Shown: positions 6,965 to 22,765 of the stretch, piece after piece | Position numbering within the stretch: the stretch's first letter is position 1 | Layout: each line of letters opens with the position of its first letter | Source of the DNA: Nitrospira sp. | GTDB taxonomy: Bacteria > Nitrospirota > Nitrospiria > Nitrospirales > Nitrospiraceae | DNA: 64,000 nucleotides | Direction: 5' to 3' | Assembly: GCA_030123565.1 (NCBI GenBank) | Contig: CP126122.1 | Location: 372,001-436,000, forward strand | The notes under the pieces: generated by a model | The model's database searches: none | Seen by the model: the letters and a program-made list of their open reading frames with translations, nothing else | What the model was told of the DNA's origin: nothing | Program-made: the position numbers and the translations under genes

Positions 6965-8067
6965 GGCCTAGCGGAAGGGTGGCCCGCCGTCACGATCTTA
7001 TACTCCTCTGGTCGGGGAAGCGAGCGCATGGCGCTCATCATGTGGCCGAGCAGCCTGGTCGTATGTTCGGTCCGTCCCTGCGTGGTCAGGTGGTATAGGT
7101 TGCCCGTAAATCGCCCCCTGGCATATTGAAAGTCGGAAGGGTTTCCGAGCATCGAGACTCCCATTCCCCGGAGTCGTTTCGTGATCACGTTCACAGAGTG
7201 CGAGACTGGCGGTGCATTGAAGTCGAGGAGGCCCTCCATGACCGGCGGCCATGCGACATAGAGGTCGATGCCTCGCGTTCGGCAACGAACGGCGAAGTCC
7301 TGCAGCACCTGCCAGAAATACGGCGACTCCACGAAGTCGGGACCCAATACATAGGGGTCGCCACCCGGCTGTGCTTGAGGTTCCGGGCTTCTGAATATGG
7401 CGTCGCCGTGAGGATCGCTGTTGAGAAACAGATACATCCCGTCCGGTCGATAGTTTTTTTGAGCCCATGCGGTGTGTACACGACTCAAAATCTGCTCGGG
7501 GCTCTTGAGCCGTCTCTGGCGGACGATCTCCAACTGCTCACCCAGACCTTGGGTCATGACGCCGACCAGAATCCGTTGCGGCCGGATGGAAAACATGAAC
7601 CGCAACTTCTCTTTCAGGTTCAACTGCCGGAAATAGTCCGGGTTCCACGCCATGGTCTGATCGGTAAACCAACTATTGTACGCGGTCGTCGAACTATACT
7701 GCTCGTACTCAAGGGGCAAGACCACGATGTCGCCCGGCTTCACGTAGGGCTCGATCTCGTTCAAGATGTATTCGACCGGCCGGCCGAGGTGGAGGCCCAT
7801 ATTGATCGTCGGGATCCCGAGCGCCGCTTCGATTCGGCTGGAATCTATTCCAAAAAGAGCGCTGGAGCCGGCCGTGAGGAGGATTTTCCTTTTCCTCCGG
7901 TTCTGTTCCAGCAGGTCACGCTTGACGATTTGGGTCTCATACATCCAATACTCCGCAGAGACCAGCGCCCCGAGCTGATAGTAGAACGCCCCGGCATACA
8001 GAAGGGAAAGAAGGGCCAGTGTGAGCGCGGTCATTCCCAAATAGGCGATCGGTGAGGATGTCTTCAT
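6961..8067 (-). CDS. Membrane-anchored protein, AlgX/DltD-like partner of an acyltransferase
   Basis: A 368-residue protein with one N-terminal transmembrane helix (about residues 8-30) and a large extracytoplasmic domain. The segment ILLTAGSSALFGIDSSRIE resembles the serine block of SGNH-like proteins that accompany MBOAT acyltransferases (DltD, AlgJ and AlgX class), and INMGLHLGRPVEYILNEI fits the next conserved part. A clear catalytic Asp-His pair near the C-terminus is not obvious. It lies six bases downstream of the MBOAT gene and overlaps the next lipase gene by ATGA, so the three form one operon. The expected role is accepting or transferring the acyl group exported by the MBOAT protein; this is inferred from context. 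Confidence 0.6.
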   Translation of the reverse strand: MKTSSPIAYLGMTALTLALLSLLYAGAFYYQLGALVSAEYWMYETQIVKRDLLEQNRRKRKILLTAGSSALFGIDSSRIEAALGIPTINMGLHLGRPVEYILNEIEPYVKPGDIVVLPLEYEQYSSTTAYNSWFTDQTMAWNPDYFRQLNLKEKLRFMFSIRPQRILVGVMTQGLGEQLEIVRQRRLKSPEQILSRVHTAWAQKNYRPDGMYLFLNSDPHGDAIFRSPEPQAQPGGDPYVLGPDFVESPYFWQVLQDFAVRCRTRGIDLYVAWPPVMEGLLDFNAPPVSHSVNVITKRLRGMGVSMLGNPSDFQYARGRFTGNLYHLTTQGRTEHTTRLLGHMMSAMRSLPRPEEYKIVTAGHPSARP

Positions 8068-8073
8068 GGGCGA

Positions 8074-9630
8074 TCAAAAATTCTGGTAGATGAATCCCCC
8101 GGGGTGCGATGTCATGGATGCGAGCAACGTGAGAAACAGGAGCACTCCGACGAACAGGGCCCTTCTCGGGGCAAACAGGGTTTCTGGCCTATGCGTCGCC
8201 GCATCCGTCCATTCGAATGTATTGGGCAGCCTGAGTGCGATGACACCGGCTGCGATCAGCCAGAACATCTGGAGCACCGGCTCTGAACAGAGCACGGTGA
8301 CCGGATAGATGGTCCATTTGTCGAAGGAGAGGGCGATCCTCGTCTGTTCGGGAAGGAAAAATTCCGCGAAAGACTGAAACCGCGGCGCCGCCTTCTCCAG
8401 GTTATGCAACGCACTGCGGATGCCTTCCGCCCACAAGCCGTTCAAGCCGAACAGGGAGGCCGAAATCCTTGCGGCCGCCGAGAGGCTGTCCGACCGGAAC
8501 CACACCCAAGCGAACGAGACGGAGCCGAAGGTGAGGAGCCATCCGAAAGGCTGGGGGCAATGGACGCCGAGCCTTCGCCAGCCATGGTTGATCATGAGAT
8601 ACAGACCATGCAGAGCCCCCCAGATCACGAATGTCCAGCCGGCTCCATGCCAGAGTCCGCAGAGCACCATGGTGACCATCACGTTGAGCTGTTGCCGCAA
8701 CAGACCTTTTTTGTTGCCGCCCAGCGGAATGTACAGATAGTCACGGAGGAAACGTGACAGGGTTATGTGCCATCGTTTCCAGAAGTCGATGATGTCGGTT
8801 GCCTTGTAGGGTGAGTTGAAATTCTGAGGCAGGGTCATGCCGAACATCCGAGCGGTCCCGAGCGCCATGTCTGTATAGCCGGAAAAGTCGAAATACAGTT
8901 GAAAACTATAGGCCAGGACCCCGCCCCAGGCTTCGACCAAGCCCAGTTCTCTGCCCAACGAGCCGGCGGCGAAGATTGGATCGGCATAGCCTGCCAAGGT
9001 GTCCGCCAGTACGATTTTCTTGAACAAACCGATCGCGAACTGGGTGATGCCTTCAGCCATCGACCCGGGCGAACAGGAGCGCCTCAGGCCTGCGATCTGA
9101 GGCACGAACTCTCCGTGCCGAACGATCGGGCCGGCCAGGAGTTTCGGAAAGAACGAGCAGAATACACAGTACTGCATGAAGTTGAACGTCTTGACCTGTC
9201 CTCGGTACACGTCGACCAGGTAGGCGATTTGTTGAAAGGTGAGGAATGAAATGCCGAGCGGGAGGTAGTCGGTGGCCGATGGAACGGCGGACTGCATGAC
9301 GGCACCGATGTTGTCCAAGAAGAACGCGGAGTACTTGAAATATCCGAGCACCGCGAGATTCGTCACCACTCCCGCCGCCAGCAGGGCCTTGCGCGAAGGG
9401 TCCGTTGCCGAAGCCCGTCGGTGGAGAACCCACCCGATACAGAAGTTGAGCGCGATCGAGAGCAGGAGCAGTTCAACGTCCGACAACGTTCGCAGGCCGG
9501 CGAACAACAGTGACGCTCCGATGAGCCAGGCCTGCGCCAGGAGAACATGACCGGTTTTATTGAGCAGAATGTGGAGGGTGAGCGCGAGGGGCAGAAAGAT
9601 GACGATGAAATCGAGCGACTGTAGCGACAT
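8074..9630 (-). CDS. MBOAT-family O-acyltransferase (AlgI/DltB-like)
   Basis: I start at ATG 9630 (MSLQSLDFIVIFLPLAL), which opens directly with a membrane helix; an upstream ATG at 9666 is possible but adds a polar 12-residue tail. The 518-residue protein has about a dozen hydrophobic helices. It carries MBOAT signatures: FPKLLAGPIVRH, FQLYFDFSGYTDMALG, NFNSPYKATDIIDFWKRWHI, and the catalytic His in LCGLWHGAGWTF. Such enzymes move acyl groups, usually acetyl, across the inner membrane onto polysaccharides such as alginate or teichoic acids. It is the first gene of a three-gene operon with an anchored SGNH-like protein and a lipoprotein hydrolase. Confidence 0.9.
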   Translation of the reverse strand: MSLQSLDFIVIFLPLALTLHILLNKTGHVLLAQAWLIGASLLFAGLRTLSDVELLLLSIALNFCIGWVLHRRASATDPSRKALLAAGVVTNLAVLGYFKYSAFFLDNIGAVMQSAVPSATDYLPLGISFLTFQQIAYLVDVYRGQVKTFNFMQYCVFCSFFPKLLAGPIVRHGEFVPQIAGLRRSCSPGSMAEGITQFAIGLFKKIVLADTLAGYADPIFAAGSLGRELGLVEAWGGVLAYSFQLYFDFSGYTDMALGTARMFGMTLPQNFNSPYKATDIIDFWKRWHITLSRFLRDYLYIPLGGNKKGLLRQQLNVMVTMVLCGLWHGAGWTFVIWGALHGLYLMINHGWRRLGVHCPQPFGWLLTFGSVSFAWVWFRSDSLSAAARISASLFGLNGLWAEGIRSALHNLEKAAPRFQSFAEFFLPEQTRIALSFDKWTIYPVTVLCSEPVLQMFWLIAAGVIALRLPNTFEWTDAATHRPETLFAPRRALFVGVLLFLTLLASMTSHPGGFIYQNF

Positions 9631-10229
9631 GGTGTTAGTGGAAGCCGACCGGAGGTTGGCCTCCATCCGCCCTCTGCCTGAGAAATGTGATCAACGGAAC
9701 GGTGTCAGGACAGGAAGAACCTTGACTAACCGCCATGCGGTCTTTGTGCATCGCAGTGCTGTCGGTCCTGTTCGAGGAAGGGAAGGTCGGAGTTGAACAA
9801 CAAGGCGAAGCAAGGTCTCGACCGTCGTCCATGGGTTGCAGCAGCTCGCCTTTCTTCTGCACCGTTCCATGGTGACAGAGCCCGTTCCTTACACGCAGCT
9901 ACGCCATTTTACTTAGCAAGAGTTGTTCCAGGACTTGTCGAAGAGGCGATAAAAACCTTCCTCTATCGAGCGGTCGCACTCGACAAGCCATGGTCCATGC
10001 GAAGGGCATCGCACGGACCTCTCAATTTCGAAATTCCTCAAGGGCTTGTACGAGATTCGTTCGGTGAGGTACCGCCATGACCGAGGATCGGTGGAAGGAC
10101 TGGTCTCGTCGTTGACCGGTCTTATGACTGTCGAACGATGCGACTGAGTGATATCGCACATCGAGCACTGTGTTCAACCGCTCATGCGCTCCGAGGCGCC
10201 AAACTGGTGGTGGGTGGCAGCGATGCCGT
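9631..10229. other. Intergenic stretch without a supported gene
   Basis: About 600 bases separate the start of the acyltransferase operon from the end of the cytochrome operon, both on the minus strand. Short open frames exist (for example 9793-10080 plus and 9913-10161 minus), but none shows a ribosome site combined with a recognisable protein pattern. An 8-base inverted repeat (CTTGTCGA at 9934, TCGACAAG at 9980) is the only symmetry noticed. The promoter of the acyltransferase operon should lie in the upper-middle part. Confidence 0.5.
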
Positions 10230-11690
10230 TCAGAGTGTCTTCAAATACTCGACCAACGCCTCCTTCTCTTTCTGCTGCAACTCTGTGCCGTAGGTGTGTC
10301 CCTGGTTGCCGCTGCCACGCTGACTCACGTCGTAACGCGTGCCGATACGCTCGGCCTCCAGCCCCGACGTGACGAATCCGACCTTGGACTGGTCATACAG
10401 GTCGTAGCCCCGATAGAACACTTTGGGACGCTTCTCGACCGATTCGAGCAGGTCCTGGATCGTCGGGACCGAGCCGTTGTGCAGGTAGGGCGCTCGGAGC
10501 CAGATGCCGTCCAGAAAGGCCGCGATGTACCCGCTGGGATTCTCTTCCACCAAGCCCTTTCGCTCGATGCCCATGGCCCTGACCACCCTGTTCGCCTCGA
10601 CAGCCGCCTGCTTGCTCCAGCTGTCGAGCCGCCCTCGATCCGTGCCCACCTCTTCCACCGGAATGCGCGTGCCGGTTCGTTCGCTCGAGTGACAGTGCGC
10701 GCAGGTCTTCTCGAACAGGGGTTTTCCCGCTGCGGCTTTCTGTTGGTCGATCGGAAACGGATAGCGGGGTGCCGGGTAGGAGCCGAGATAGTCCTCGAAC
10801 CAGGTGATGTGCCGCAAAAACTCTTCCTTGTCGTGCGGTGCCGCGCCGAGGACGCCCAATGCCGAGTCGATGATCACCGAATGGGCGTCATGGCTGTCGC
10901 CGGCGAGATTCATCAAATGCCCCTTCTCCGGCTTGTATTTGTTGAGATTCCAGAGCGACGGCATATCGGTCGGTCCGATGCTGTCGTCCATCGGAAACTT
11001 GATCATGAAATACTTCGTCAGGTTCATCGCATCGTCGCGGCCGCGGCCCCATTCGGGAAAGTCCTTCCTATAGATCCAGGCGAACTGTTGTTCGCGTTCC
11101 AGCAAGCGCTTCTTCGTGATCGGGATGAGGATGAACCGGTAGATCATCCGGTCGAGCACCGAGAGGTCGGCCGATAGATTGATCTCGGCCATCATATTGT
11201 CTGGGTTGAAGCGAGGGTCCTTCGCGCAGTCGATCATGAAGCGAAAGAACGCCTCGAGATTCAGGGTGTGATTGGGCCCCGTCGGCACGAAGGTCGGGTT
11301 TTCGCCCGGCTTGGACCGATAGCTGGCCGTGTGACAGGAGGCGCAGGTATTGGCGACGCGGGGAAAGCCGATAGTCCGTTTTGTGAAGCCGATGGGCATC
11401 TCCTGTCCCTGTTCCCAGAGGATGCCCAATGAGGCGTAGCCGCCGGGGCCGGGCAGTTTCTCCGGGAACATGCGCGGCAGTACGTACCAGATCCAGTAGG
11501 GGACACCGGCGTCATACTCGGCGCCGATCGAGCCGTACTTGAAACGCATGTGCGGGTCCGCCGTGATCCAGGCCGGTTGGGGCTCTTCGCGAAAGAATTT
11601 GTACCAGCCCAGGACGACCGTCGCGCCGGCCGACAGGAGCAGGATGAAGAGGATCGTTTTGACGGTTCGCCGCCCACGTGTTTCTTTCAT
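10230..11690 (-). CDS. Exported c-type cytochrome with two CxxCH motifs
   Basis: I use ATG 11690 (MKETRGRRTVKTILF) because it places basic residues directly before the membrane helix. The 486-residue protein is anchored or exported by the N-terminal helix and has two haem-binding motifs, CASCH (about 116-120) and CAHCH (about 330-334). The C-terminal segment GIWLRAPYLHNGSVPTIQDL and the following FYRGYDLYDQ are also found in its operon neighbour, showing the two are paralogues. This wording occurs in the broad class of dihaem cytochromes that includes peroxidase-like and RoxA-like proteins. Function is not known; electron transfer or oxidation in the periplasm is the general expectation. It is the last gene of a five-gene operon. 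Confidence 0.8.
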   Translation of the reverse strand: MKETRGRRTVKTILFILLLSAGATVVLGWYKFFREEPQPAWITADPHMRFKYGSIGAEYDAGVPYWIWYVLPRMFPEKLPGPGGYASLGILWEQGQEMPIGFTKRTIGFPRVANTCASCHTASYRSKPGENPTFVPTGPNHTLNLEAFFRFMIDCAKDPRFNPDNMMAEINLSADLSVLDRMIYRFILIPITKKRLLEREQQFAWIYRKDFPEWGRGRDDAMNLTKYFMIKFPMDDSIGPTDMPSLWNLNKYKPEKGHLMNLAGDSHDAHSVIIDSALGVLGAAPHDKEEFLRHITWFEDYLGSYPAPRYPFPIDQQKAAAGKPLFEKTCAHCHSSERTGTRIPVEEVGTDRGRLDSWSKQAAVEANRVVRAMGIERKGLVEENPSGYIAAFLDGIWLRAPYLHNGSVPTIQDLLESVEKRPKVFYRGYDLYDQSKVGFVTSGLEAERIGTRYDVSQRGSGNQGHTYGTELQQKEKEALVEYLKTL

Positions 11691-11731
11691 CGATATGTGT
11701 GTCTCTCCGAACGACGTACGGCCCGTCATTC

Positions 11732-13261
11732 CTAGAAGGTCTTGAGATACTCGACCAGCGCTGCCTTGTCTTCCGCCGGCAATTCGGTTCCGTACGGTTT
11801 GCCTTCGTGCCCGCTATTGGAGTTGCCGGGGATGGCTGTATCGAACTTGAAGTAGCGCCGGCTGTTCTCTTTATCGACGGTCGAGACAAAGCCGACCTTG
11901 GTTTGATCGTACACGTCATAACCCCGGTAAAATGTAGGGGGTCGACGTGAGCTCGGTTCGAGGAGATCCCACAACGTCGGCACTGAGCCGTTGTGCAGAT
12001 AGGGAGCGCGCAGCCACAGTCCGTCCAGCGGCATATTGGCGTAGCCGAACGTCTTGCGGAAGTGCGAGAACCGTTCGTCGGCATCATCCGTTCCGGCGTA
12101 TAAAAGATTCTGATTCACGGCGAGATCATAGGTGTAGGAGTCCAATCGATGCCGATCCGTGTTGATCCGGTCGATCGGCGTGACCTTGCCGATTTCTTGG
12201 CCGTCAAAATTTCGCCCGTTCAACCCATGGCAACCGGCACAGTAGCCGGTGTAGATCGCGGCGCCCTTCGCTGCGAGTTTCGCATCGACGGGATAGGGAT
12301 AGAGGGGCGGGGTATGCGCGAGGAGCCAATCTTCGGTGCGGCGGATCCTTCCGCGATCGAGCGTCGGGGGAGTGGCGCCGGTCCCGAACGCCGCGCTGCG
12401 ATTGCGCTCCTCGACCTTCGTGTTGTTGCCGTCCCAGTGCAACTGCATCTGCTTGTCCTTGCGGGGGCCTTGTAACCAGATCGATGGAAAATCGGTGACC
12501 CCGGTCAATTCGGACGACGGAGCCTTGTCCATGGGAAAGTTGAACAGCGCCTTGGCGGATCCGAAGGTATCGACCCGTCCCGGCCCCCAATCCGGTCGCT
12601 GCAACATGGATGAGAACCGGTTCTCCAACATCAACAGCCGGTCCCGCATCATATAAATCGCCAACGGGTAGATCAGATAACGGTCCAGCGCCTTCAGGTG
12701 CGTGCCGGAGAGTCGGTGTACTTCGGGAATGAGGTGCTCCGGAGAGAACTTGGCATCCTTGGCACAAGCGAACAGGAACTTCTCGAAGGCCATCAGGTCA
12801 ACGGTATTGGCCGGCATGCCGGTGATGATCCTGGGCTTGCCGTCCGGCTGGTCGCGCACCGTGCCGGTATGGCAGACGGCACAATTCAAGAACACTCGAT
12901 CCAATCCCATGTGGCGGCGCTTCGACATCCCGATTGGAAGATCGTTGTCCCCTTCATAGAGGAATCCCAACGCCTTGAATTCCTGGCCGGGGAAATCCTT
13001 TCCCCCCGGCAATGTGTCCTCACAAACCCGGGGCATGGCTTTCCATATCCAATAGGGGAACCCGGACGCGCGCTCCCCGCCGGTCGAACCATATTTGAAG
13101 TGAGCTTCGGCGTCGGCATAGTCGACCGGGACATCGGCGCCGAACCTTGCCGCCAACAAGCCACACGATCCCCCCGCCATGATCAGAAAGGGCAGCAGGA
13201 CCATCCAGCAGGTTTTATTCACGACCTTCAAAGAATCTGTCTCGGCAGGGTGACCGCTCAT
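11732..13261 (-). CDS. Exported c-type cytochrome with two CxxCH motifs, paralogue of the next gene
   Basis: ATG 13261 follows GAGAGGAA at good spacing. The 509-residue protein has an N-terminal hydrophobic helix (about 19-37) and haem motifs CAVCH (127-131) and CAGCH (341-345). It shares with the downstream paralogue an HFKYGSTGGE-like segment, a YWIW motif near residue 70, GLWLRAPYLHNGSVPTL and FYRGYDVYDQTKVGFV, and ends with the same VEYLKTF-type helix. The two probably arose by tandem duplication. A dihaem periplasmic redox protein is the safe call; a catalytic activity (peroxidase- or oxygenase-like) cannot be assigned because the distal haem ligands are not recognisable by eye. Confidence 0.8.
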   Translation of the reverse strand: MSGHPAETDSLKVVNKTCWMVLLPFLIMAGGSCGLLAARFGADVPVDYADAEAHFKYGSTGGERASGFPYWIWKAMPRVCEDTLPGGKDFPGQEFKALGFLYEGDNDLPIGMSKRRHMGLDRVFLNCAVCHTGTVRDQPDGKPRIITGMPANTVDLMAFEKFLFACAKDAKFSPEHLIPEVHRLSGTHLKALDRYLIYPLAIYMMRDRLLMLENRFSSMLQRPDWGPGRVDTFGSAKALFNFPMDKAPSSELTGVTDFPSIWLQGPRKDKQMQLHWDGNNTKVEERNRSAAFGTGATPPTLDRGRIRRTEDWLLAHTPPLYPYPVDAKLAAKGAAIYTGYCAGCHGLNGRNFDGQEIGKVTPIDRINTDRHRLDSYTYDLAVNQNLLYAGTDDADERFSHFRKTFGYANMPLDGLWLRAPYLHNGSVPTLWDLLEPSSRRPPTFYRGYDVYDQTKVGFVSTVDKENSRRYFKFDTAIPGNSNSGHEGKPYGTELPAEDKAALVEYLKTF

Positions 13262-13284
13262 GTGAGATGTTCCTCTCCGTTGAC

Positions 13285-15747
13285 CTATTTCTCCACGGCA
13301 TGACCGTCAGACCTGTTGGGATGACTGCTCCGGTTCGTACCCGACGCTGCCGCAACCGCTGGCGCAGAAGGCGGCATGCACTCCCGCAAGTTGTCGTAGC
13401 CTTTTGCCGCGAGGCCTTCCAGCCGCGGCGTCTCACCTTGTGATTTCAACCACTCGGCGCTGTAGGACTTCATCGATGCGAGATCGGCATGGTCGGCCCA
13501 TTGCTCAGGAGAGAGATTCAACCGCTGCAACTCCGTGATCGGCGGCATGGGCGCTTCCTGTCGCCTGGAAGGAGGCAGCCCCCACATCTCCAATCGGAAC
13601 AGGATGCGTTCGGCGCAGTGGTGGACCTGTTCCTTGATTTGCTGCGGAGAGCCATGGAGAAAATTCGGCGGGAAGGACAGGTCTTCGTGGTGGCATTGGG
13701 CGCAGTATCGATGGAAGGCCTTGAAGACCGGTGGAAGCGTCTCGTCGCGAACGGCTTCGTCACGATCGTGCAAGGCCTTCTCCGTGGTCGAGACCGGATC
13801 GGGCATGTGGTGAGCATCTTCGCAACACCACGAGAGGGACGGCATTTTGAGCTGTTCGAACAAGGCCTTCAGCGTGCTTGCTCGCCGAAATGGTTTGCCT
13901 GTGAACACATCGGATTCACCGGCCAGCGTCGCTCGTTCCATCGAATCGATCGCCCGCTCGATCGGAACATAATCCTCCAACACGGCCATGGTGGCGGTGC
14001 CCGTGAGCAGAGCGGTTTGACCGGGAAGCCGTGGTTCTTTCCCAGCGACACCGACCTGAAAGCTGATGTCTTTGATCGCGTGACCATCGGCCAGTCGAAC
14101 GTGGAGACCAGGCCCCTTCTGCCTCACGTCGATCAGCCCACGGTGCCGACGGCCGTTGGAAGTCAACGTTCCGCCGGCCACCTTCAGATCGACCAGCTCG
14201 TCTTCATGATCGGTCGACAGTCGATCGATCGTCCCGCCCACGACGGTTCCGGCTTTGAGATACAGGACTCCCTCCATCGAGAACCCAGGTCCTTCGTCGT
14301 CGGTCCGCTGCTCGGGCCGCCGACATCGAAAGGTGACCCGATCTGTCGTCCCGCCACGTTCCCTGACATTTGCCTCGCAGCTGCTCTGATAACGGCGGAG
14401 GTGAACACCGGAGCGTAGGGCCTGCCGGAACAGGTAGGTATCCAGCCGTGCTACATCCACGTCCGCCAGAAAACGCGAGAGGCCAGACAAGAACCGGTCC
14501 ACGGCACCGTCGTCTCCATGGGATACGGACCAGACCGCCAGCGGTTCCCTCGCAAGGCTGGGCTCGAAGATAGAGCGGATCATTGTCCGTTCCCGGTTGT
14601 TGCCATACCCATGAGACGGGACGGGCGGTTCACCGACCAGGGATGACTTCATCTGTACGTAGTCCAGCGGATTTCTGTTCAAGAGGTCCGGGTTTGGAAT
14701 CTTGAGACCCTTCGGCCACCGTTCCTTCCAGTAAGTTGCGAAGCGCTGAACGAATCGGTGTCGGGAAGGGGACAGTGGGTGAAGGGTCGGTCGTGATCCG
14801 CTCAGGCGGGATTGCAGGAGAAAACGAAACACGTCCGCTCGGCATTGAATCGAGTCGCGCGGTGTCCCGGCCTGTTCGCAGCCATCCTGCCAAAGCAATT
14901 GATAGACGGAGAATTCATTCGCCCGGTCCGTGGCGTCATCGATGGCATTGGGGACATCGATGCCTTGGCGGAGTGGAAATCGATAGAACTCCGTCCGCTG
15001 TTGTTCGAGGAGCGCGGCGATGTTTGGATTCGCATTGGTTTCTTCCCACAAGGGCCGTGAAAAGATCGGGGCCTGGTTCTGATGACAGGTGGTGCACAAT
15101 GCGCGGTTCGCATAGGAGACTTTCGGGATTTGCCCCGGACCATAGTCCCGCACCACTTGAAATTCGAACCGGCCGGCCGCTTCGTTGTAACTGATGACCT
15201 CAAGGATGGCAGCCTTTTCCTGATAACCGAGGAACAGGCGGTCTTTGAGCAGCATGCCTGAAAAACCGGCGCGCATCGGAGGCTCGCCGTCAACCCCGAC
15301 GACCGCTCGCGGAAATGTGAAATGTTCCGGTTTGGCCGCATTCCTCTGCAGCGAACGGTTCAACGGGATCAAGACCCGCTTGAGGGGAGAGCGGTGGTCA
15401 ACGGACTCCAGTTCTTTCTCGATTCTCTCCAGCAGCGCCGTAAAGGGGAAGGGCACGTCATACACCTTCTCGCGCCCTTGCATGGTGGTGACCAGATAGT
15501 CAAAGAGCGATCGTCCCACCGGCGGGACATCGGGTCCCGGCAGTGCGGGATCCACCACCCACTTGGGTCCTCCTGTTTCAGCCGGGGCTGTGTGATACTC
15601 CGCCCCGGCCGCCGGCAATGGGCCTCGTTCGCTGTGCTCACGATCACATGAAGTCAGAGCCGCGGCCATGATTAGACCGATGAAGAGGAACCTCCACAAC
15701 GGCAGATCCTTCTCGCCACAACCGTCGCCATGCCGTGGTCCTTCCAC
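13285..15747 (-). CDS. Large lipoprotein with two CxxCH haem motifs
   Basis: The open frame begins at GTG 15747; a TTG at 15699 behind GAGAAGGA is an alternative start just before the signal sequence. The lipobox is AALTSC (Cys34), predicting a lipidated, membrane-bound protein. Haem motifs are CTTCH (218-222, in ANRALCTTCHQNQAP) and CAQCH near residue 680 in RYCAQCHHED. The long central part has no motif known to me and contains several Cys outside CxxCH. The C-terminal part after the second motif resembles the end domains of cytochromes that bind haem in a short terminal module. It lies between a small lipoprotein and two related dihaem cytochromes, all within 40 bases of each other. Confidence 0.7.
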   Translation of the reverse strand: MEGPRHGDGCGEKDLPLWRFLFIGLIMAAALTSCDREHSERGPLPAAGAEYHTAPAETGGPKWVVDPALPGPDVPPVGRSLFDYLVTTMQGREKVYDVPFPFTALLERIEKELESVDHRSPLKRVLIPLNRSLQRNAAKPEHFTFPRAVVGVDGEPPMRAGFSGMLLKDRLFLGYQEKAAILEVISYNEAAGRFEFQVVRDYGPGQIPKVSYANRALCTTCHQNQAPIFSRPLWEETNANPNIAALLEQQRTEFYRFPLRQGIDVPNAIDDATDRANEFSVYQLLWQDGCEQAGTPRDSIQCRADVFRFLLQSRLSGSRPTLHPLSPSRHRFVQRFATYWKERWPKGLKIPNPDLLNRNPLDYVQMKSSLVGEPPVPSHGYGNNRERTMIRSIFEPSLAREPLAVWSVSHGDDGAVDRFLSGLSRFLADVDVARLDTYLFRQALRSGVHLRRYQSSCEANVRERGGTTDRVTFRCRRPEQRTDDEGPGFSMEGVLYLKAGTVVGGTIDRLSTDHEDELVDLKVAGGTLTSNGRRHRGLIDVRQKGPGLHVRLADGHAIKDISFQVGVAGKEPRLPGQTALLTGTATMAVLEDYVPIERAIDSMERATLAGESDVFTGKPFRRASTLKALFEQLKMPSLSWCCEDAHHMPDPVSTTEKALHDRDEAVRDETLPPVFKAFHRYCAQCHHEDLSFPPNFLHGSPQQIKEQVHHCAERILFRLEMWGLPPSRRQEAPMPPITELQRLNLSPEQWADHADLASMKSYSAEWLKSQGETPRLEGLAAKGYDNLRECMPPSAPAVAAASGTNRSSHPNRSDGHAVEK

Positions 15748-15756
15748 AATAGCCCG

Positions 15757-16611
15757 TCACTTCACCATCGCCGTCATCCGCTGTGAACCCACCCAGCAAT
15801 CCTCCTGCGCGTGGCCGGCGGTTTGAAATGCTCCCGCCTCTGTCTCGGCGATGGCCGGGTTGTAGAGGGTGAAATTCAACAGGAAGACCTTCTTCATGTA
15901 GGCGCGGCCGAGGTAGAACCCCGGTCTGACCATGCGAATCTCATCGCGGATCTCAAACCCGTCCCGCCCCGCCAGGACATCAGGCTTTTCCCGATATCCC
16001 GGGAGGTCGTCGGTAAAGGCGTAGTCGATGATGATCGATTCCCGCCTCCCGTCCAGCAGGCTCTGTCCGCAATATAACTTGGCCGGAAAGAGCAACCAGG
16101 TGTCTTTCCCGTCCACGTCGAGTTTCTGTATGGTCTGGGTATCCGGTCCTACCAAGGGCTTCAGGACGGCCAGATCATTGATTCTGTTCCGCAACAGCCG
16201 TTGAGACCGATAGAACACCTTCCCTTTCCACACCGCTTCGGCCACATGCTCGAGCTTGGCGGTTTTCAGGTCGACGACCAGCCCCTTCAGACCACCGCCG
16301 ACGATTTCGGCCAACCTTGCGCGGCCGCTGCCGCCTTTGGGAAAGAAGGCTTGGCCGTTATAGGGGCCGTCTGGAATCGGTCCCGCGGTCAAACGCGCAT
16401 AGATTTGATCCACCTGTTCCTGCGTCGCGGCCTCGAGATTGTCCGGCGTGATCTTCATCAATTCGGCAGGGGTGAAGGGAAGCTCGTGCTCGAGGCGAGC
16501 GAAGTCGATGGCGACGTTGCCGAACCTCACCGCCGGTGGTTCACGCTCGCAGGCGGTCAGCAGCGCAAGGAGCAACGTGGAATAGACAAGGGCGTCAGGG
16601 CGTCGCATCAT
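15757..16611 (-). CDS. Lipoprotein of unknown function in the cytochrome operon
   Basis: This 284-residue product starts MMRRPDALVYSTLLLALLTAC, a clear lipoprotein signal with the lipidated Cys at 21. The mature part has no CxxCH motif and only a few Cys. A Gly-rich segment (GGSGRARLAEIVGGGLKG) and a hydrophilic, mixed alpha/beta composition are visible, but no family is recognised. It lies nine bases upstream of the large two-haem lipoprotein and 36 bases after the preceding cytochrome, so it is part of the operon. It may be a structural or assembly partner of the cytochromes; that role is only inferred from position. Confidence 0.65.
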   Translation of the reverse strand: MMRRPDALVYSTLLLALLTACEREPPAVRFGNVAIDFARLEHELPFTPAELMKITPDNLEAATQEQVDQIYARLTAGPIPDGPYNGQAFFPKGGSGRARLAEIVGGGLKGLVVDLKTAKLEHVAEAVWKGKVFYRSQRLLRNRINDLAVLKPLVGPDTQTIQKLDVDGKDTWLLFPAKLYCGQSLLDGRRESIIIDYAFTDDLPGYREKPDVLAGRDGFEIRDEIRMVRPGFYLGRAYMKKVFLLNFTLYNPAIAETEAGAFQTAGHAQEDCWVGSQRMTAMVK

Positions 16612-16647
16612 GGTGTCTCTCCCTCGGTTGAACGACCGGTCCGCTCG

Positions 16648-19086
16648 TTACAACGTTGCCAGAAACGCGGTCAGGGCCTGCTTGTCCCTGTCCGACAGGT
16701 CTTCGCCGAAACGATGCCCCTCGTCTTCGCGCAACATCAAACTGTTGCTGTACAGCTCGCGCAATTCGGCGCCGACCAGCAGGAGACTTTTCGGATCGTT
16801 CATGAGCTCCTTGGCCTTCTCGCGAATCGTGGCCGCCGCGGTCTTTCCCGCCTCCGGGCCATAACGAGCGACATATTTCGCCTCCAGTTTCCCGAAGTCC
16901 GTCTTCGAGAGGACCAGATCGTCGGCGAATTCTTTATGGCGAAAATTGCCGATGCGCGAGGAGGGAGTCCCCTTGGGAAACACGATGGTCGCATTCAGAT
17001 AGCGCTCGACGTTCCCGTCCGACAATTTGGGGAACAGTCTGATGACGACGTCCCGGTTGAACATGGTGATCTTCGGGACTCGCTTGCCGGGATTGAGCAG
17101 ATCCGCCACGGAAGCCTTGAACAGCCTGTACCGGCCCTCCACGCTCGGGTCGAACGGCCAACAGGCGGGTGGATCGGCCAACGGGACAACACGCTTCTCG
17201 TCCGCATAGGGCGGGTTGTAATGTTCATCGTCCGGCCCGCCGCAGAGTTCGGGGCCGATGGCATTGTTATGCATGAACGGTGCATGGGCCCAGAGGCTAA
17301 GGAGTGAGATATTGCGATAATAGCCGCGCCCCCCGTCCGAGGGTTCCTTGATGTTCGGGTCCGGCGGCTTGGCGCGCAATGTCTCAGACCCATATTCCTC
17401 CCAAATGTGCCCGGCCATGTGGTTGGAATGCAGCGCACGCGCTCGATGCGTGCCCACCTCCGTCACCGGCGTCAATTTGTCGTTCCCCAGCCAATCGATC
17501 CGAATGCCCTGGTCTTGCGGGTCCTTGGACGACTCGCGAAAATCACGCGATTCGAACGGTTCCGACTGGGAGGAATGGCAGCGCGCGCAGTTCTTCGCAA
17601 AGATCGCTTTACCTCGATCGACGGAACCGGCGCCGAATTCCTTGTCCAATTGCTCCACCAGGTCGCGGGCGTCTTTCAACCCTCTGGCCTTATACAGATC
17701 GGAAGGGCGGCCCGAGGCCAGGAAGTCGAAGATGTTGCCGAGTCGGTCTTCGATCGCACGGAATTGCGGACAGTCGCGGCGCGCTTGGCCGATGTCGAAG
17801 GGAGTCTGCCCGAATCCCCGTTGCGCCGGATCCAGTTGCCGCATATCGGTGAGGTGGTTCACCCAGGATTCTTCCGAGCAGCTTCCGATGTTGAAATAGA
17901 CGCGCTGGATCGCTTCGAAGGCCCCGATGCTGTCTTCTCCGCCTTTCAAGATCTGATTGACCACTTCCTCCTTTTTCCCTCGTTGCCAACATTTGCCGTC
18001 ACGGCCCGGTTCGCACCAGCATTCCCGCTCATGGCTGCCGGCAAGACATTGGTTGGTCTTCCGCCATTTGATGATGACATTGGGATGCTTGGGGCGTTTC
18101 GCCAGATTGATCAGCGCGTTGATCGTGCCGGGATTGTTGATCTGATCGTTGGGAATCGCGGAGGTATCGACGGTGCCGGGCCTCGCATGGGCATAGACCT
18201 GATACTCGATCGACCGGGGGTCCATGCCGGACCCGAGAATTTGCGAGAAGCGTGAGTACTGATTCCCGACCGTTCCCGAGAGGTTTTCCGACTTCGGATG
18301 CGCGGGATTCTTGGGCGGATTCAGAGGGTTGAAGGCGATGTGACATGACCCGCAGGAAATGCCGACCAGAAAGGGAGGTTCGATCGAGCCGTCCGTGATT
18401 CTGCTGCGGGCCGGTTGCGTGGAGTCGGCCGGTTTCCTGCGTTCGTTATAGCCGGACCAGGTTCCCGCCCGCCCCTTGTTGACGGTGAGCCACTGCTCCT
18501 TGTTGAACCTCGGATTGGGAAATTTTCTGACTCCCATCGCGCCGGTGGAAGTGCCGAACCGTAGATCGCAAGCCGACTGCCGCTGATCCTTGGGGCTATG
18601 GGGGTCGTCAGCAACAAGTATGGCGTCCCTGAATCCACAGGCAGGATCTTGGTAGCCTTCCTTCCCGACATAACTCAGCAAGACGTCATCGCCCGGGCAG
18701 TAATCGAACCCATACGTATCTTCTTCGCTCTTTGCGGGACAATTGGGATCGCCCGGTTTGCAACATTCGGGATCGTTGATCAGCCCCCACCGGTTGAAGC
18801 GCTGTTCCCGACTCTTCGTGTTCAGTACGCGGTACCAATCGATCATTACTCCGATCCGCTGTGGATAGACGTACGTGAAGAAGCGCTCGTTTCCCGCCGT
18901 AGCCTTAAACCAGATTTCCGCTCCCGCCCGCTCGGAGTCGTTGAGATTGCCTCCGCCGTAACGAAAGTCGGGGGCAGGCTCTTCCTTCACGACCAGCGCC
19001 GGTGGGCCGGTGGTATCCTTTCCATTCACGACGGCCACCAGGCCGACATACAGCATGAGGCTCACGGCAACCATGAGAGGCTTCAT
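16648..19086 (-). CDS. Large exported cytochrome with two CxxCH motifs and Cys-rich insertions
   Basis: I start at ATG 19086 (MKPLMVAVSLMLYVGLVAVV), the only start that begins directly with a signal peptide; GGGGG lies about eight bases upstream. The 812-residue protein has haem motifs CGSCH (245-249) and CARCH (500-504). Extra Cys occur in pairs in two insertions (PECCKPGDPNC and ECWCEPGRDGKCW), suggesting disulphides. After the second haem, NISLLSLWAHAPFMHNNAIG resembles the LRAPYLHNGS segment of the two smaller cytochromes of the operon, tying it to the same dihaem class. Size and layout are reminiscent of large dihaem oxygenase- or peroxidase-like proteins, but I cannot confirm this. It is the first gene of the operon. 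Confidence 0.75.
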   Translation of the reverse strand: MKPLMVAVSLMLYVGLVAVVNGKDTTGPPALVVKEEPAPDFRYGGGNLNDSERAGAEIWFKATAGNERFFTYVYPQRIGVMIDWYRVLNTKSREQRFNRWGLINDPECCKPGDPNCPAKSEEDTYGFDYCPGDDVLLSYVGKEGYQDPACGFRDAILVADDPHSPKDQRQSACDLRFGTSTGAMGVRKFPNPRFNKEQWLTVNKGRAGTWSGYNERRKPADSTQPARSRITDGSIEPPFLVGISCGSCHIAFNPLNPPKNPAHPKSENLSGTVGNQYSRFSQILGSGMDPRSIEYQVYAHARPGTVDTSAIPNDQINNPGTINALINLAKRPKHPNVIIKWRKTNQCLAGSHERECWCEPGRDGKCWQRGKKEEVVNQILKGGEDSIGAFEAIQRVYFNIGSCSEESWVNHLTDMRQLDPAQRGFGQTPFDIGQARRDCPQFRAIEDRLGNIFDFLASGRPSDLYKARGLKDARDLVEQLDKEFGAGSVDRGKAIFAKNCARCHSSQSEPFESRDFRESSKDPQDQGIRIDWLGNDKLTPVTEVGTHRARALHSNHMAGHIWEEYGSETLRAKPPDPNIKEPSDGGRGYYRNISLLSLWAHAPFMHNNAIGPELCGGPDDEHYNPPYADEKRVVPLADPPACWPFDPSVEGRYRLFKASVADLLNPGKRVPKITMFNRDVVIRLFPKLSDGNVERYLNATIVFPKGTPSSRIGNFRHKEFADDLVLSKTDFGKLEAKYVARYGPEAGKTAAATIREKAKELMNDPKSLLLVGAELRELYSNSLMLREDEGHRFGEDLSDRDKQALTAFLATL

Positions 19087-19534: not shown

Positions 19535-19864
19535 CTACCGTTTGTAGACGACGGTGACTCGGGCGAGAAAATTCTGCAACTCTTTGTGGTGACTCTGTAA
19601 CGCGATGAAGTCTCCGGCCAGCGCGGCCTGTTCAAGCTGGTGGCCGATGGCGCTGATGCGTTGGAAGCCATACCCACCGCCGTCGCCTTTCATGCGGTGG
19701 CCCAGCAGGCGAATGGTCTTGAAATCGCGTTGCTGCAGACAGGAGGCAATGGTCACGAGGTCTCTTCGCCGGTTGTCGAGGAAGCCCGGCACGATCGCTT
19801 CAAGGTCCGGATCGATCTGTACGACGACCTTGTCCTGGCTGGCCTCCGGTTGCGCCGGTATCAT
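19535..19864 (-). CDS. Histidine phosphotransfer (HPt) protein
   Basis: A 109-residue, mostly helical protein. The segment [17 protein letters not shown] contains the HPt signature HxxKG.(S/G), with the phosphorylatable His56. HPt proteins shuttle phosphoryl groups between receiver domains of hybrid kinases and final response regulators. The start codon overlaps the stop of the hybrid kinase by four bases (19861-19864), so the two are co-translated. This makes it the obvious partner for that kinase's C-terminal receivers. The output is likely one of the two upstream response regulators. Confidence 0.85.
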
Positions 19865-21627
19865 TGGGATCGCCTTTCATAGGCCGAAAGCAACTCCAGG
19901 AGCGTGGTTTTCTTCAGCGGTTTGGTCATGTGGGCGTTGCAGCCCGCCTCAAAAATCCTGGTCGATTCCTCCTTGAGCGCCAGCGCGGTCAGGGCGACGA
20001 TTTGGACCGCCGGCAGACTCTGTTCCTGCTCCCATTTCCTGATGGTTTTCGTGGCGGTCTGGCCGTCCATGACCGGCATCTGCATATCCATGAGGATGAG
20101 GTCATAGTGGCCGTTCTGAAACTTGGCGACGCCGATCTGGCCGTTATCGGCGAGGTCCAGCCGGTGGGGTGTGTCCTTGAGATAGGACTGGATCAAGATC
20201 TGGTTGTCCTGTGAATCTTCGACCAGGAGGATTCGCAAGGAGCGGCCTTTGGACGGGGCTGTTGAGGACGTCCCTTGAGCCGCAGTCGAGAACCCACTCT
20301 TGCTTCGGCCCAGGGCGATACTGATGGTCTGCTGGAGATCGGAACGCCGGATCGGCTTGACCAAGTAGCCGCCCAGGCCGAGGTCGTAGGTCTTGGCGAT
20401 ATCGTCGGCCCATCGGTCGGAGGCCAGCATGATGATCGTGAGGCCGCTGAGTCGGGAATCGGCATGGATGCGTTCGATGACCTCGAACCCGTCCATTCCA
20501 GGCATCCGGCAATCCAGCAAGAGCAGGCCGAAGGGGGTCCCTGATTTTCTGGCGTCCTCCAGTGCCTCCATCGCCTGTTCACCGCTGTCGGCTTCCACGA
20601 CAGAGGCGCCCCAGCCGTAGAGTGTTTCGCGTAAGATCAGCCGGTTGGTCGGATAATCGTCCACGACCAGACAGCGGAGCCCGGTCAAGTTCATGGTGAC
20701 GGGGACTTTCGATGACGACGGGGTCGACTGAACCCCCAACCGGACGACACAGTGAAAGGTGCTGCCCTCGCCGACCGTGCTTTCGACCCAGATCCGGCCG
20801 TCCATGAGCTTTGCCAGTTGCTGGGAAATCGCCAGACCCAGACCTGTGCCTCCATACCGTCTGGCGATCGTGCTGTGGGCCTGGGTGAAGGTATCGAAGA
20901 TGGCCTGCAACTTGTCTTGCGGCACGCCGATCCCCGTATCTGCAATCGAGAATCGAATCACGCCCGGTTCCCGCCGCTCGGGATCGTTGGTGACCGTCAT
21001 GACGACGGATCCCTTGTCCGTGAATTTGATCGCATTCCCCAGCAGGTTCAGCAGGATTTGATACAGTCGGTTGGGATCGCCGATCAGGTGGCAGGGCACC
21101 TCGTTCGAGAGGTGGCAGACCAGTTCCAGACCCTTTTCATTGGCCCGCAGCGCCAACATTTCGCTGGCCTTGTCGAGCAGTTCGGAGAGGTCGAAGTCGA
21201 TCGCATCCAGGTCCAGGCGGCCCGATTCGACTTTGGAGAGGTCGAGAATGTCGTTGATCAGGCTCAGCAGGCTGGCTCCGGCGCGACGAAAGATGCGCAG
21301 GTACTTCCGCTGTTCGGGGGTGAGCGTGGTCTCCCACAACAGGTCGGCCATGCCGATGATGGCATTCATCGGGGTCCGGATCTCATGGCTCATGCTGGCC
21401 AGGAATTCACTCTTGGCGCGGTTGGCCACATCGGCGGCATCCTTCGCGTTCTGTAGTTCTTCGACCCGGCGTTTGAGTTCGTTCGAGACGCGGTCGAGCG
21501 CCCGTTCGGCTCGTCGGCGGGCGAGTTGTTCGCGCTGTAACGCCGTGGGTGGACGGGGAGTGGTGCGTGGGTTGCCTGTGGAGGGAGCGGCCGAGGGTCG
21601 TCGAGGTTGCGCGGTGCGTTTCGCCAT
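19861..21627 (-). CDS. Cytoplasmic hybrid histidine kinase with two receiver domains
   Basis: The start at ATG 21627 ([13 protein letters not shown]) is chosen because the longer open frame upstream is Arg/Pro-rich non-coding in character. The 588-residue protein has a short basic N-terminus, a coiled coil (about 30-70), a HisKA domain with His81 in [12 protein letters not shown], and a HATPase domain with [12 protein letters not shown] and [10 protein letters not shown]. Two receivers follow, with phosphoacceptor Asp in [12 protein letters not shown] and [13 protein letters not shown]. There is no transmembrane helix or sensor domain, so input must come from another protein. The neighbouring HPt and two response regulators complete a multistep phosphorelay. 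Confidence 0.9.
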
Positions 21628-21715
21628 GTCCTGGTCCGGTCGGCCCCAGTCCCTCGTGACGGTCCGCGACAGGGTTGCGCGGCATGCGGGAGGACGTCGC
21701 GACGGCGGGCGGGAA

Positions 21716-22720
21716 TCAGTCCTTGTGAGTGTGGTGCACGAGCGAGAGGACTCCGGCCTGTTTGGCGCGATTGCGCCCCTCTTGCTTCGCTTGGTAGAGC
21801 GCTTGGTCGGCGGCCCGAATGAGATCGGTGGGCGCGGCGACGCGACTGGGCACGGTGCTCGCAAAACCGAGACTGATGGTGACGGGATCGCCGTTGGGAT
21901 GTTTGATTTCCGCCTCGCAGACTTTCCGTCTGAGCGTATCGGCGACCTGTCCGGCGCCTTCCACCGTGGTTCCCGGCAGCACGATGACGAACTCGTCGCC
22001 GCCGTAACGGGCGACCAAGTCGCCGGGACGATTCACATGGCTCGAAATGAGCTGGGCGACCTGGCGGAGACATTCGTCCCCGGCCTGGTGGCCGTGGCTG
22101 TCGTTGTAGGTTTTGAAGAAATCGATGTCGAGCATGATCAGCGACAACGGCGTGGCCTCGCGCGCCGCCCGCCGCCATTCCTGGTCGAGGAAATCGTCGA
22201 ATTGCCGCCGGTTGGTGATCCCGGTCAAGCCGTCGAGGCAGGAGAGGCGCAACAACATCTGATTGGCTTCCTGCAGCTGGCGCATGACTTCCAGCAGTTC
22301 CTGCTCGCGTGCGCGGCGGCGCTCGATTTCATGGACGAGGCGGAGTACGCAACGGACACGCGTGAGGAGTTCTATCTTGCTGACGGGCTTGGCGACATAG
22401 TCGATCGCGCCGGCGGCGAAGGCGAGCTGCAGATCCACCGGATCCGTCTTGACCGTGACCATGATGATGGGGATGTCGCGATACCGTTCGACGGCCTTGA
22501 TTTGCCGGCAGGCTTCGATGCCGCTGGTGGCGGGCATGACGATATCCATTAAGATCAAATCCACCCGGCCGGTCGTCTGCTTGCCGCCGTCGAGCCCCAG
22601 CACGCGAAACGCCGCGGCGGCGGATTCCGCGACGAAGGTTTCTTCGTAGCCGGCATTGGCGAGGATGGATTGAATCAGCAGGCGATCGTCCGCCGAATCA
22701 TCGACGATCAGGATTCCCAT
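21716..22720 (-). CDS. Response regulator diguanylate cyclase (REC-GGDEF)
   Basis: A 334-residue, PleD-like protein. The N-terminal receiver has the acidic pair in ILIVDDS, the phosphoacceptor Asp59 in LILMDIVMP and the conserved Lys in YVAKPVS. After a coiled linker the GGDEF domain shows the intact active-site motif GGDEF at 240-244 and an RPGD inhibitory I-site at 231-234, so it should make cyclic di-GMP and be product-inhibited. It lies 45 bases downstream of another receiver protein and 88 bases before the hybrid kinase. It is therefore the likely final output of this phosphorelay, changing adhesion or motility through c-di-GMP. Confidence 0.92.
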
Positions 22721-22765
22721 GGTGCAGTGTCTCCCTGAAAGTGAGCCGTAGGGGGATGCTAGCAG

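What the first reader, a model, noticed from the sequence alone, without database searches (positions are those of the whole stretch)
10230..19086. Five-gene operon of four two-haem cytochromes and a lipoprotein with no known catalytic partner
Seen: genes separated by only 9-41 bases, each cytochrome having two CxxCH motifs, three sharing a variant of LRAPYLHNGSVPT near the C-terminus. Two are lipoproteins, so a membrane-bound complex is possible. No quinone, molybdenum or multicopper subunit is encoded. Inference: a periplasmic redox or oxygenase/peroxidase-like system, maybe using organic substrates or peroxides; the class resembles RoxA/MauG-type dihaem proteins from memory only.
Basis: partly seen in the sequence, partly recalled or inferred. 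Interest (0 to 1): 0.62.

Follow-up and report, generated by a model that had tools for sequence, protein, structure and literature searches.

The report
RoxA-like dihaem oxygenase operon, Nitrospira
A nitrite-oxidiser genome carries a conserved five-gene operon of four two-haem proteins and a lipid-binding-like lipoprotein that most likely adds oxygen to fatty or other oily molecules, or processes the peroxides so formed, outside the inner membrane; related enzymes do this in rubber-degrading bacteria and Pseudomonas, but this gene set itself seems undescribed.

Summary
The operon is real. Five minus-strand genes (A 16648-19086, B 15757-16611, C 13285-15747, D 11732-13261, E 10230-11729) lie 2-36 bases apart. 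A, C, D and E have two CxxCH each; B is a lipoprotein. The order A-B-C-D-E is conserved in other Nitrospira and in Burkholderiales, Rhodocyclaceae, Pseudomonas fluorescens and a gammaproteobacterium, so it is one unit. D and E belong to the RoxA-like dihaem family (PF21419, NF040606 over cut-off). A is a distant relative by profile comparison. C is an unrelated dihaem protein with an optional barrel domain. B is modelled as a calycin-like (lipid-binding-type) barrel. Relatives of D, E and A sit beside patatin phospholipases, catalase-family proteins, animal haem peroxidases and old-yellow enzymes. In 299 sampled Pseudomonadota genomes, 11 of 32 RoxA-like loci have a catalase-family neighbour, against 0 of 32 control windows. 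In a sister Nitrospira genus, D and E were replaced by DyP-like and catalase-family genes, leaving a scar of E. D keeps the active-site Trp and Phe of RoxA and of the Pseudomonas oleate 10S-dioxygenase; E lacks both. Best reading: a periplasmic lipid or isoprenoid oxygenase plus hydroperoxide-processing system. Substrate and chemistry are inferred. New variant of a known kind.

The parts
16648..19086 (-). Gene A, 812 aa, secreted two-haem protein; CGSCH at residues 245-249, CARCH at 500-504; degenerate MauG motif PFMHNNAIGP at 603; C-terminal GH791 (candidate second ligand of haem 2). Distant RoxA-like protein.
   Evidence: homology to D/E by hhalign; H791 invariant in 19 sequences
15757..16611 (-). 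Gene B, 284 aa lipoprotein (LLTAC lipobox), no Pfam or NCBIfam family; modelled calycin-like beta-barrel with conserved WKGKVF and DEIRMxxPGxYLGRxY motifs
13285..15747 (-). Gene C, 820 aa two-haem lipoprotein (ALTSC lipobox, GTG start); CTTCH 218-222, CAQCH 682-686; invariant M734 is a candidate Met ligand; unrelated in sequence to D, E or A
13960..14418 (-). Optional 8-stranded barrel inserted in C (about residues 444-596), absent from C of the sister genus; best PDB match 2q03 (Z 9.9), then [4+2] cyclases, dirigent proteins and allene oxide cyclase (Z 5.9)
11732..13261 (-). Gene D, 509 aa, N-terminally anchored RoxA-like dihaem protein; CAVCH 127-131, CAGCH 341-345, PYLHNGSVP, W276 (RoxA W302) and F292 (RoxA F317), H485
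10230..11729 (-). Gene E, 499 aa, N-terminally anchored RoxA-like dihaem protein; CASCH 129-133, CAHCH 343-347, PYLHNGSVP; RoxA W302 and F317 positions are Leu and Leu
18340..18354 (-). haem-binding motif 1 of A (CGSCH)
   Evidence: invariant in 19 sequences
17575..17589 (-). haem-binding motif 2 of A (CARCH)
   Evidence: C500, C503, H504 invariant
15082..15096 (-). haem-binding motif 1 of C (CTTCH)
   Evidence: C218, C221, H222 invariant
13690..13704 (-). haem-binding motif 2 of C (CAQCH)
   Evidence: C682, C685, H686 invariant
12869..12883 (-). haem-binding motif 1 of D (CAVCH)
   Evidence: invariant positions
12227..12241 (-). haem-binding motif 2 of D (CAGCH)
   Evidence: invariant positions
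11331..11345 (-). haem-binding motif 1 of E (CASCH)
   Evidence: invariant positions
10689..10703 (-). haem-binding motif 2 of E (CAHCH)
   Evidence: invariant positions

Best explanation
A horizontally spread, periplasm-facing oxygenase and hydroperoxide-processing module for hydrophobic unsaturated substrates (fatty acids or other lipids/isoprenoids). Shown here: one conserved five-gene unit; A, D and E are RoxA-superfamily dihaem proteins with a conserved C-terminal His that would make the second haem a six-coordinate electron-transfer haem; D and E are old paralogues that travel together. Inferred: the N-terminal haem of D (His131, with W276 and F292 as in RoxA and the Pseudomonas oleate 10S-dioxygenase) binds O2 and dioxygenates the substrate's double bond. 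E, which lacks W and F, handles the resulting hydroperoxide or relays electrons, as PA2078 (7,10-diol synthase) does for PA2077. A acts on a further step. Lipoprotein B, a calycin-like barrel, binds or delivers the hydrophobic substrate at the membrane. Lipoprotein C, a new dihaem type with probable His/Met haem 2, passes electrons or processes product.
For: D/E in PF21419 and NF040606 over cut-off; RoxA 4b2n is the top PDB hit (E 9e-24). A related to D/E by profile comparison. RoxA W302/F317 are kept in D and absent from E; in PMC4496055 the Trp position separates PA2077 (dioxygenase, W+F) from PA2078 (hydroperoxide diol synthase, S+F). A-B-C-D-E order conserved across phyla; E clade supported 100/97 and D clade 81/85, including rhizobial copies. 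Neighbours of relatives: OYE, GMC oxidoreductase and patatin in Rhizobium plasmids; catalase and patatin in pNGR234a; catalase plus animal haem peroxidase in Paracoccus, and a catalase-peroxidase fusion in R. phaseoli; animal haem peroxidase and OYE with two D/E-like genes (L097). In an unselected Pseudomonadota sample, catalase-family neighbours in 11 of 32 loci against 0 of 32 controls, Fisher p 3.5e-4. Own genome: third RoxA-like gene, then a sensor kinase and a FadL/TodX gene. D/E slot replaced by a DyP-like and a catalase-family gene, leaving a scar of E. B model matches 4mve (Z 10.1) and, weakly, fatty-acid and retinoid-binding barrels.
Against: No substrate, product or electron partner is shown. 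D and E are shorter (about 500 aa) than RoxA or PA2077 (about 630-670 aa) and lie far below the RoxA/B/C equivalog cut-offs. F292 is Leu in rhizobial D copies, and some E copies have Trp. The lipid-related neighbours occur with relatives, not in this operon. The B model is of medium confidence (pLDDT 69.6) and its lipid-binding matches are weak (Z 4.4-5). Why a chemolithoautotroph would oxygenate lipids is unknown.
Confidence: 0.45

Rival explanations
1. Hydrogen-peroxide or organic-hydroperoxide detoxification: the dihaem proteins are periplasmic peroxidases that reduce peroxides with electrons from the respiratory chain through C, protecting the outer membrane, without making a specific product.
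For: NF040606 is named di-heme cytochrome c peroxidase; catalase-family and DyP-type genes replace or accompany the relatives.
Against: No match to the canonical PF03150 CCP/MauG family; W302/F317 signature in D resembles oxygenases; a lipid-type barrel lipoprotein, and patatin and FadL neighbours of relatives, are unexpected for H2O2 removal.
Confidence: 0.22
2. MauG/MbnH-like protein maturation: one or more dihaem enzymes oxidise residues of a partner protein encoded alongside (for example lipoprotein B, with invariant W128 and several invariant Tyr) to make a cofactor or metal site.
For: A lipoprotein next to dihaem enzymes recalls MbnH/MbnP (own knowledge); B has invariant W128, Y71, Y197, Y206, Y233 and Y238; NGSVP motif shared with MauG.
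Against: E scores 16.5 bits against 362.85 for the MbnH family and B matches no family; B is modelled as a calycin-like barrel in which the Trp sits in a WKGKVF motif; rhizobial D-E-A operons have no B.
Confidence: 0.1
3. Periplasmic electron-transfer relay: the four cytochromes form a wire between the inner membrane and an outer acceptor or donor, with no catalysis of their own.
For: Eight haems in one operon with lipoproteins and anchored proteins; C has an invariant Met consistent with a His/Met electron-transfer haem.
Against: Three of four belong or relate to a catalytic dihaem family; catalase-family and DyP-type genes took the D/E slot, which would not replace a wire; no porin or quinol dehydrogenase is adjacent.
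Confidence: 0.13
4. Degradation of a specific exogenous hydrophobic polymer or terpenoid, as with RoxA and rubber, for carbon or detoxification.
For: RoxA homology and conserved W/F in D; FadL/TodX gene beside the third RoxA-like gene.
Against: No RoxA/RoxB/RoxC equivalog score; nitrite oxidisers are not known polymer degraders (established knowledge); RoxC proteins tested lack rubber activity (PMC10837239).
Confidence: 0.1

Closest known systems
Pseudomonas aeruginosa oleate-diol synthase operon PA2077/PA2078 (10S-DOX and 7,10-DS; FadCcp subfamily)
   Same: Two adjacent RoxA-like dihaem paralogues, exported; one partner (D, PA2077) keeps the Trp and Phe of RoxA and the other (E, PA2078) lacks the Trp.
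Rubber oxygenases RoxA, RoxB and the RoxC group (PDB 4b2n)
   Same: PF21419 segment, two CxxCH, PYxHNGSVP motif, C-terminal His ligand. Most RoxC are lipoproteins of unknown function (PMC10837239).
   Different: Scores 58-84 bits against equivalog cut-offs of 900-1000; shorter; anchored rather than secreted or lipidated; several dihaem proteins in one operon.
Rhizobium/Sinorhizobium plasmid operon OYE - D' - small membrane protein - E' - A' - GMC oxidoreductase - (patatin)
   Same: Orthologous D, E and A trio in one operon.
   Different: No B or C; has flavoenzymes and sometimes a phospholipase; uncharacterised.
MbnH/MbnP and MauG dihaem enzymes
   Same: Dihaem architecture and NGSVP-type motif; in MbnH/MbnP a lipoprotein partner (own knowledge).
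   Different: Family scores far below cut-off; B matches no family; PF03150 is not matched.
Catalase-related fatty-acid hydroperoxide enzymes (coral cAOS/cHPL-LOX fusions, PMC5617202)
   Same: The catalase-family genes beside RoxA-like genes, and the catalase-peroxidase fusion in R. phaseoli, parallel the catalase-oxygenase pairing.
   Different: Not present in this operon; only in the sister-genus variant and in relatives; activity untested.

Membership tests
RoxA-like cytochrome c (PF21419) | score over gathering cut-off 26.7 | tested here: met
   D 60.6 and E 63.1 bits. A is 11.1 and C has no match, so only D and E meet it.
[quoted passage not shown]
   D 191.1, E 162.1; A 24.8 fails.
RoxA, RoxB, RoxC equivalogs (NF050033, NF050034, NF051462) | score over 900-1000 | tested here: not met
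   Best 84.4 bits.
RoxA superfamily | C-terminal His as second ligand of haem 2 and MauG-motif His | tested here: met
   Positions H485 and H423 of D are His in all D/E rows; in A, H791 is invariant but the MauG His is lost in three of the four rhizobial copies.
RoxA superfamily | W302 and F317 of the oxygenase active site | tested here: met
   D: W276 and F292; E: Leu and Leu, so met by D only.
FadCcp (PA2077/PA2078) | two adjacent dihaem paralogues acting on unsaturated fatty acids | tested here: inconclusive
Canonical bacterial cytochrome c peroxidase/MauG (PF03150) | Pfam match | tested here: not met
   No PF03150 match for A, C, D or E at E up to 10.
MbnH/MbnP | TIGR04039 cut-off 362.85 for MbnH; family match for the MbnP lipoprotein | tested here: not met
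   E 16.5 bits; B has no Pfam or NCBIfam match.
Calycin / fatty-acid-binding barrels (B) | calycin-like beta-barrel fold | tested here: inconclusive
   AlphaFold model pLDDT 69.6; 4mve Z 10.1 over 139 residues (rmsd 3.2); FABP/CRABP Z 4.4-4.9.
Allene-oxide-cyclase-type barrels (insert of C) | 8-stranded barrel fold | tested here: inconclusive
   2q03 Z 9.9 over 115 residues, PloI4 cyclase 8.9, AOC 4h69 5.9; a shared fold shows no function.
Rubber or fatty-acid dioxygenase activity | O2-dependent cleavage or hydroperoxide formation | not testable with these tools
   Needs enzymology.

The most novel reading that the evidence does not exclude
A dedicated multi-enzyme oxylipin-type pathway, assembled from three RoxA-superfamily haem enzymes, a lipid-carrier lipoprotein and a previously undescribed dihaem protein class (C) carrying an allene-oxide-cyclase-like barrel, working in the periplasm of a nitrifier that grows on nitrite.
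Probability: 0.15. Interest if true: 0.8.

Novelty: new variant of a known kind. Interest (0 to 1): 0.56.

Why it matters
RoxA-branch dihaem enzymes with known substrates are few (rubber, oleate, oleate hydroperoxide), while PF21419 genes turned up in 27 of 299 sampled Pseudomonadota genomes and the RoxC group has no known function. The neighbourhood evidence gives the wider family a testable substrate class, lipid and hydroperoxide chemistry. The operon supplies a five-gene unit, with an orthologous copy in a genome labelled Pseudomonas fluorescens, in which to test it. It would also mean that some Nitrospira and several proteobacteria share an oxidative lipid chemistry.

Tried and rejected
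C as another RoxA-like protein: rejected as unsupported, profile-profile 15.6% against D/E and 4.3% against A. Single-sequence search of A against the PDB gave only generic cytochrome c hits; the profile was needed. B against Pfam, NCBIfam and PDB sequences: nothing. No sigma-70 promoter or intrinsic terminator above the shuffled expectation near the operon. Plasmid searches with B and C: no match. One sequence in the D/E tree (L068_E) was mistranslated, with 14 stops and a very long branch; it was disregarded when reading clade supports. A direct comparison with PA2077/PA2078 or whole RoxA was not possible because their sequences were not in hand. Sensor genes upstream (19535-23413) were considered as regulators but are not conserved beside the operon outside the genus. 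Literature searches found no description of this operon; only open-licence papers were searched. Foldseek gave no match under E 0.001 for B or C.
Full report
OBSERVATION. Five minus-strand genes, here A (16648-19086), B (15757-16611), C (13285-15747), D (11732-13261) and E (10230-11729), are separated by 36, 9, 23 and 2 bases. A, C, D and E have two CxxCH each and B has none; the shuffled expectation is at most 0.0055 per protein. D and E contain LRAPYLHNGSVPT exactly, A only LWAHAPFMHNNAIGP, and C nothing similar. B and C have lipoboxes; D and E have an N-terminal hydrophobic anchor followed by conserved residues. The genome is a Nitrospira: its nearest matches among named genome records are Nitrospira MAGs, and it has one contig of 4.62 Mb.

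CONSERVED UNIT. The order A-B-C-D-E recurs in other Nitrospira and in Burkholderiales (L018), Pseudomonas fluorescens PS862 (L019), Rhodocyclaceae (L021) and a gammaproteobacterium (L023); identities there are 56-58% for A and 34-39% for C, the least conserved. In the own family 26 of 175 genomes have a relative of A, so the module is patchy and probably mobile (inference). Among 13 fetched family loci, seven have D and E, five have three other genes in that slot, and one has only A and B. The replacing genes are a 436-aa unknown, a DyP-like peroxidase (TIGR01413 82 bits, below its cut-off of 100.5; PF20628 20.3 bits against 20) and a catalase-family protein. In L011 and L012 a fragment of about 50 residues of E remains directly behind them, so D and E were replaced in place.

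FAMILIES. D and E are over the cut-offs of PF21419 (RoxA-like) and NF040606, and the D/E profile finds RoxA 4b2n first in the PDB (E 9e-24). They are far under the RoxA, RoxB and RoxC equivalog cut-offs. PF03150 (canonical CCP/MauG) is not matched. A aligns to D/E over haem 2 and the MauG motif with 98.5% probability, E 3e-15, and keeps the C-terminal GH (H791 invariant in 19 sequences). C is not detectably related. Its only invariant His are those of CxxCH, and M734 is an invariant Met, suggesting a His/Met haem 2 (inference). A tree puts E copies of Nitrospira, Proteobacteria and Rhizobium in one clade (100/97) and D copies in another (81/85), so the pair is old (one mistranslated row disregarded).

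ACTIVE SITE. The HMM alignment to 4b2n places RoxA W302 and F317 on D W276 and F292. W is kept in all eight D rows, and F in all but the rhizobial ones; window E has Leu at both. PMC4496055 reports that PA2077 (oleate 10S-dioxygenase) keeps both residues and PA2078 (hydroperoxide diol synthase) has Ser for the Trp; W302 is described there as the inter-haem bridge and F317 as essential for RoxA. By analogy D would be the O2-activating partner and E a hydroperoxide-using or accessory partner. This is inference.

B AND C STRUCTURES. The B model (pLDDT 69.6, pTM 0.71) is a beta-barrel whose best PDB match is 4mve (Z 10.1, 139 residues, rmsd 3.2), with fatty-acid, retinoid and bile-acid binding proteins at Z 4.4-4.9. 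The C model (pLDDT 68.9) shows a separate eight-stranded barrel at 444-596 whose best match is 2q03 (Z 9.9), then PloI4 cyclase (8.9), dirigent proteins and allene oxide cyclase (5.9). That domain is absent from C in the sister genus, so it is not essential to the unit. The haem-bearing parts of C were barely tested by the fold search.

NEIGHBOURHOODS. Rhizobium and Sinorhizobium plasmids carry OYE - D' - 143-aa membrane protein - E' - A' - GMC oxidoreductase, with a patatin-like phospholipase next in pRL11. pNGR234a has RoxA-like - catalase - unknown - dihaem CCP - patatin. Paracoccus yeei has RoxA-like - catalase - animal haem peroxidase, and Rhizobium phaseoli a catalase/animal-haem-peroxidase fusion directly before a RoxA-like gene. 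G099 of the own family has A', GMC, an animal haem peroxidase and a D homologue. L097 has two D/E-like genes around an animal haem peroxidase and an OYE. In the window's own genome the third RoxA-like gene is followed by a sensor kinase and a FadL/TodX gene. As a control against picking examples, PF21419 was searched in 299 Pseudomonadota genomes (27 positive). For 32 fetched stretches holding these loci and 32 windows from the same genomes, two genes on each side were scanned: PF00199 catalase was in 11 of 129 neighbours and is not among the families listed for 128 control genes. By phmmer the catalase-family protein was found in 11 of 32 loci against 0 of 32, Fisher p = 3.5e-4. Relatedness among genomes is not corrected for. 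Catalase-related haem proteins are known to rearrange fatty-acid hydroperoxides in corals (PMC5617202).

INTERPRETATION. The pattern - lipase, oxygenase (RoxA-like or cyclooxygenase-like), catalase-family or DyP-type haem protein, OYE, FadL - fits oxygenation of unsaturated lipids and processing of their hydroperoxides. The best reading is that A-E is a periplasmic, membrane-associated version of this chemistry with its own carrier lipoprotein. The family placements and gene orders were measured here; substrate, direction and each protein's step are inferred. Rivals are peroxide detoxification, an electron relay, MauG/MbnH-like maturation of B, and polymer degradation; their tests are listed.

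NOVELTY. The enzyme family is known. The five-gene unit, the A and C protein types, the B lipoprotein and the D/E-for-peroxidase swap were not found described in the library searched, so this is rated a new variant of a known kind.

Noticed in passing
L011:9570-9716 and L012:18425-18577: A relic of about 50 residues of gene E lies right behind the three genes (unknown, DyP-like, catalase-family) that took the D/E slot in a sister Nitrospira genus: a gene-replacement scar.
   Followed up: partly
L086:8813-10600 and L086:4587-8706: The window's genome has a third, more distant RoxA-like gene (595 aa) followed by a GAF/histidine-kinase-like gene and a FadL/TodX outer-membrane transporter gene.
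   Followed up: partly
L045:4100-8597: Rhizobium phaseoli plasmid encodes a catalase plus animal-haem-peroxidase fusion directly upstream of a RoxA-like dihaem gene.
   Followed up: partly
L080:6443-13852 and L079:6631-12896: A divergent A paralogue sits beside a galactose-oxidase-like kelch protein and a GMC oxidoreductase in a sister-genus Nitrospira genome.
   Followed up: partly
L103:6288-9977: A RoxA-like gene in a Pseudomonadota genome is adjacent to a DyP-type peroxidase and a relative of the 436-aa unknown, the same genes that replace D/E in Nitrospira.
   Followed up: no
window 6191-9666: Downstream MBOAT acyltransferase and GDSL-type genes on the same strand look like a polysaccharide O-acetylation cluster; not part of the conserved unit.
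   Followed up: no
window 19535-23413: A two-component group (Hpt-like protein, hybrid kinase, GGDEF response regulator, response regulator) lies upstream on the same strand; conserved only within the genus.
   Followed up: no
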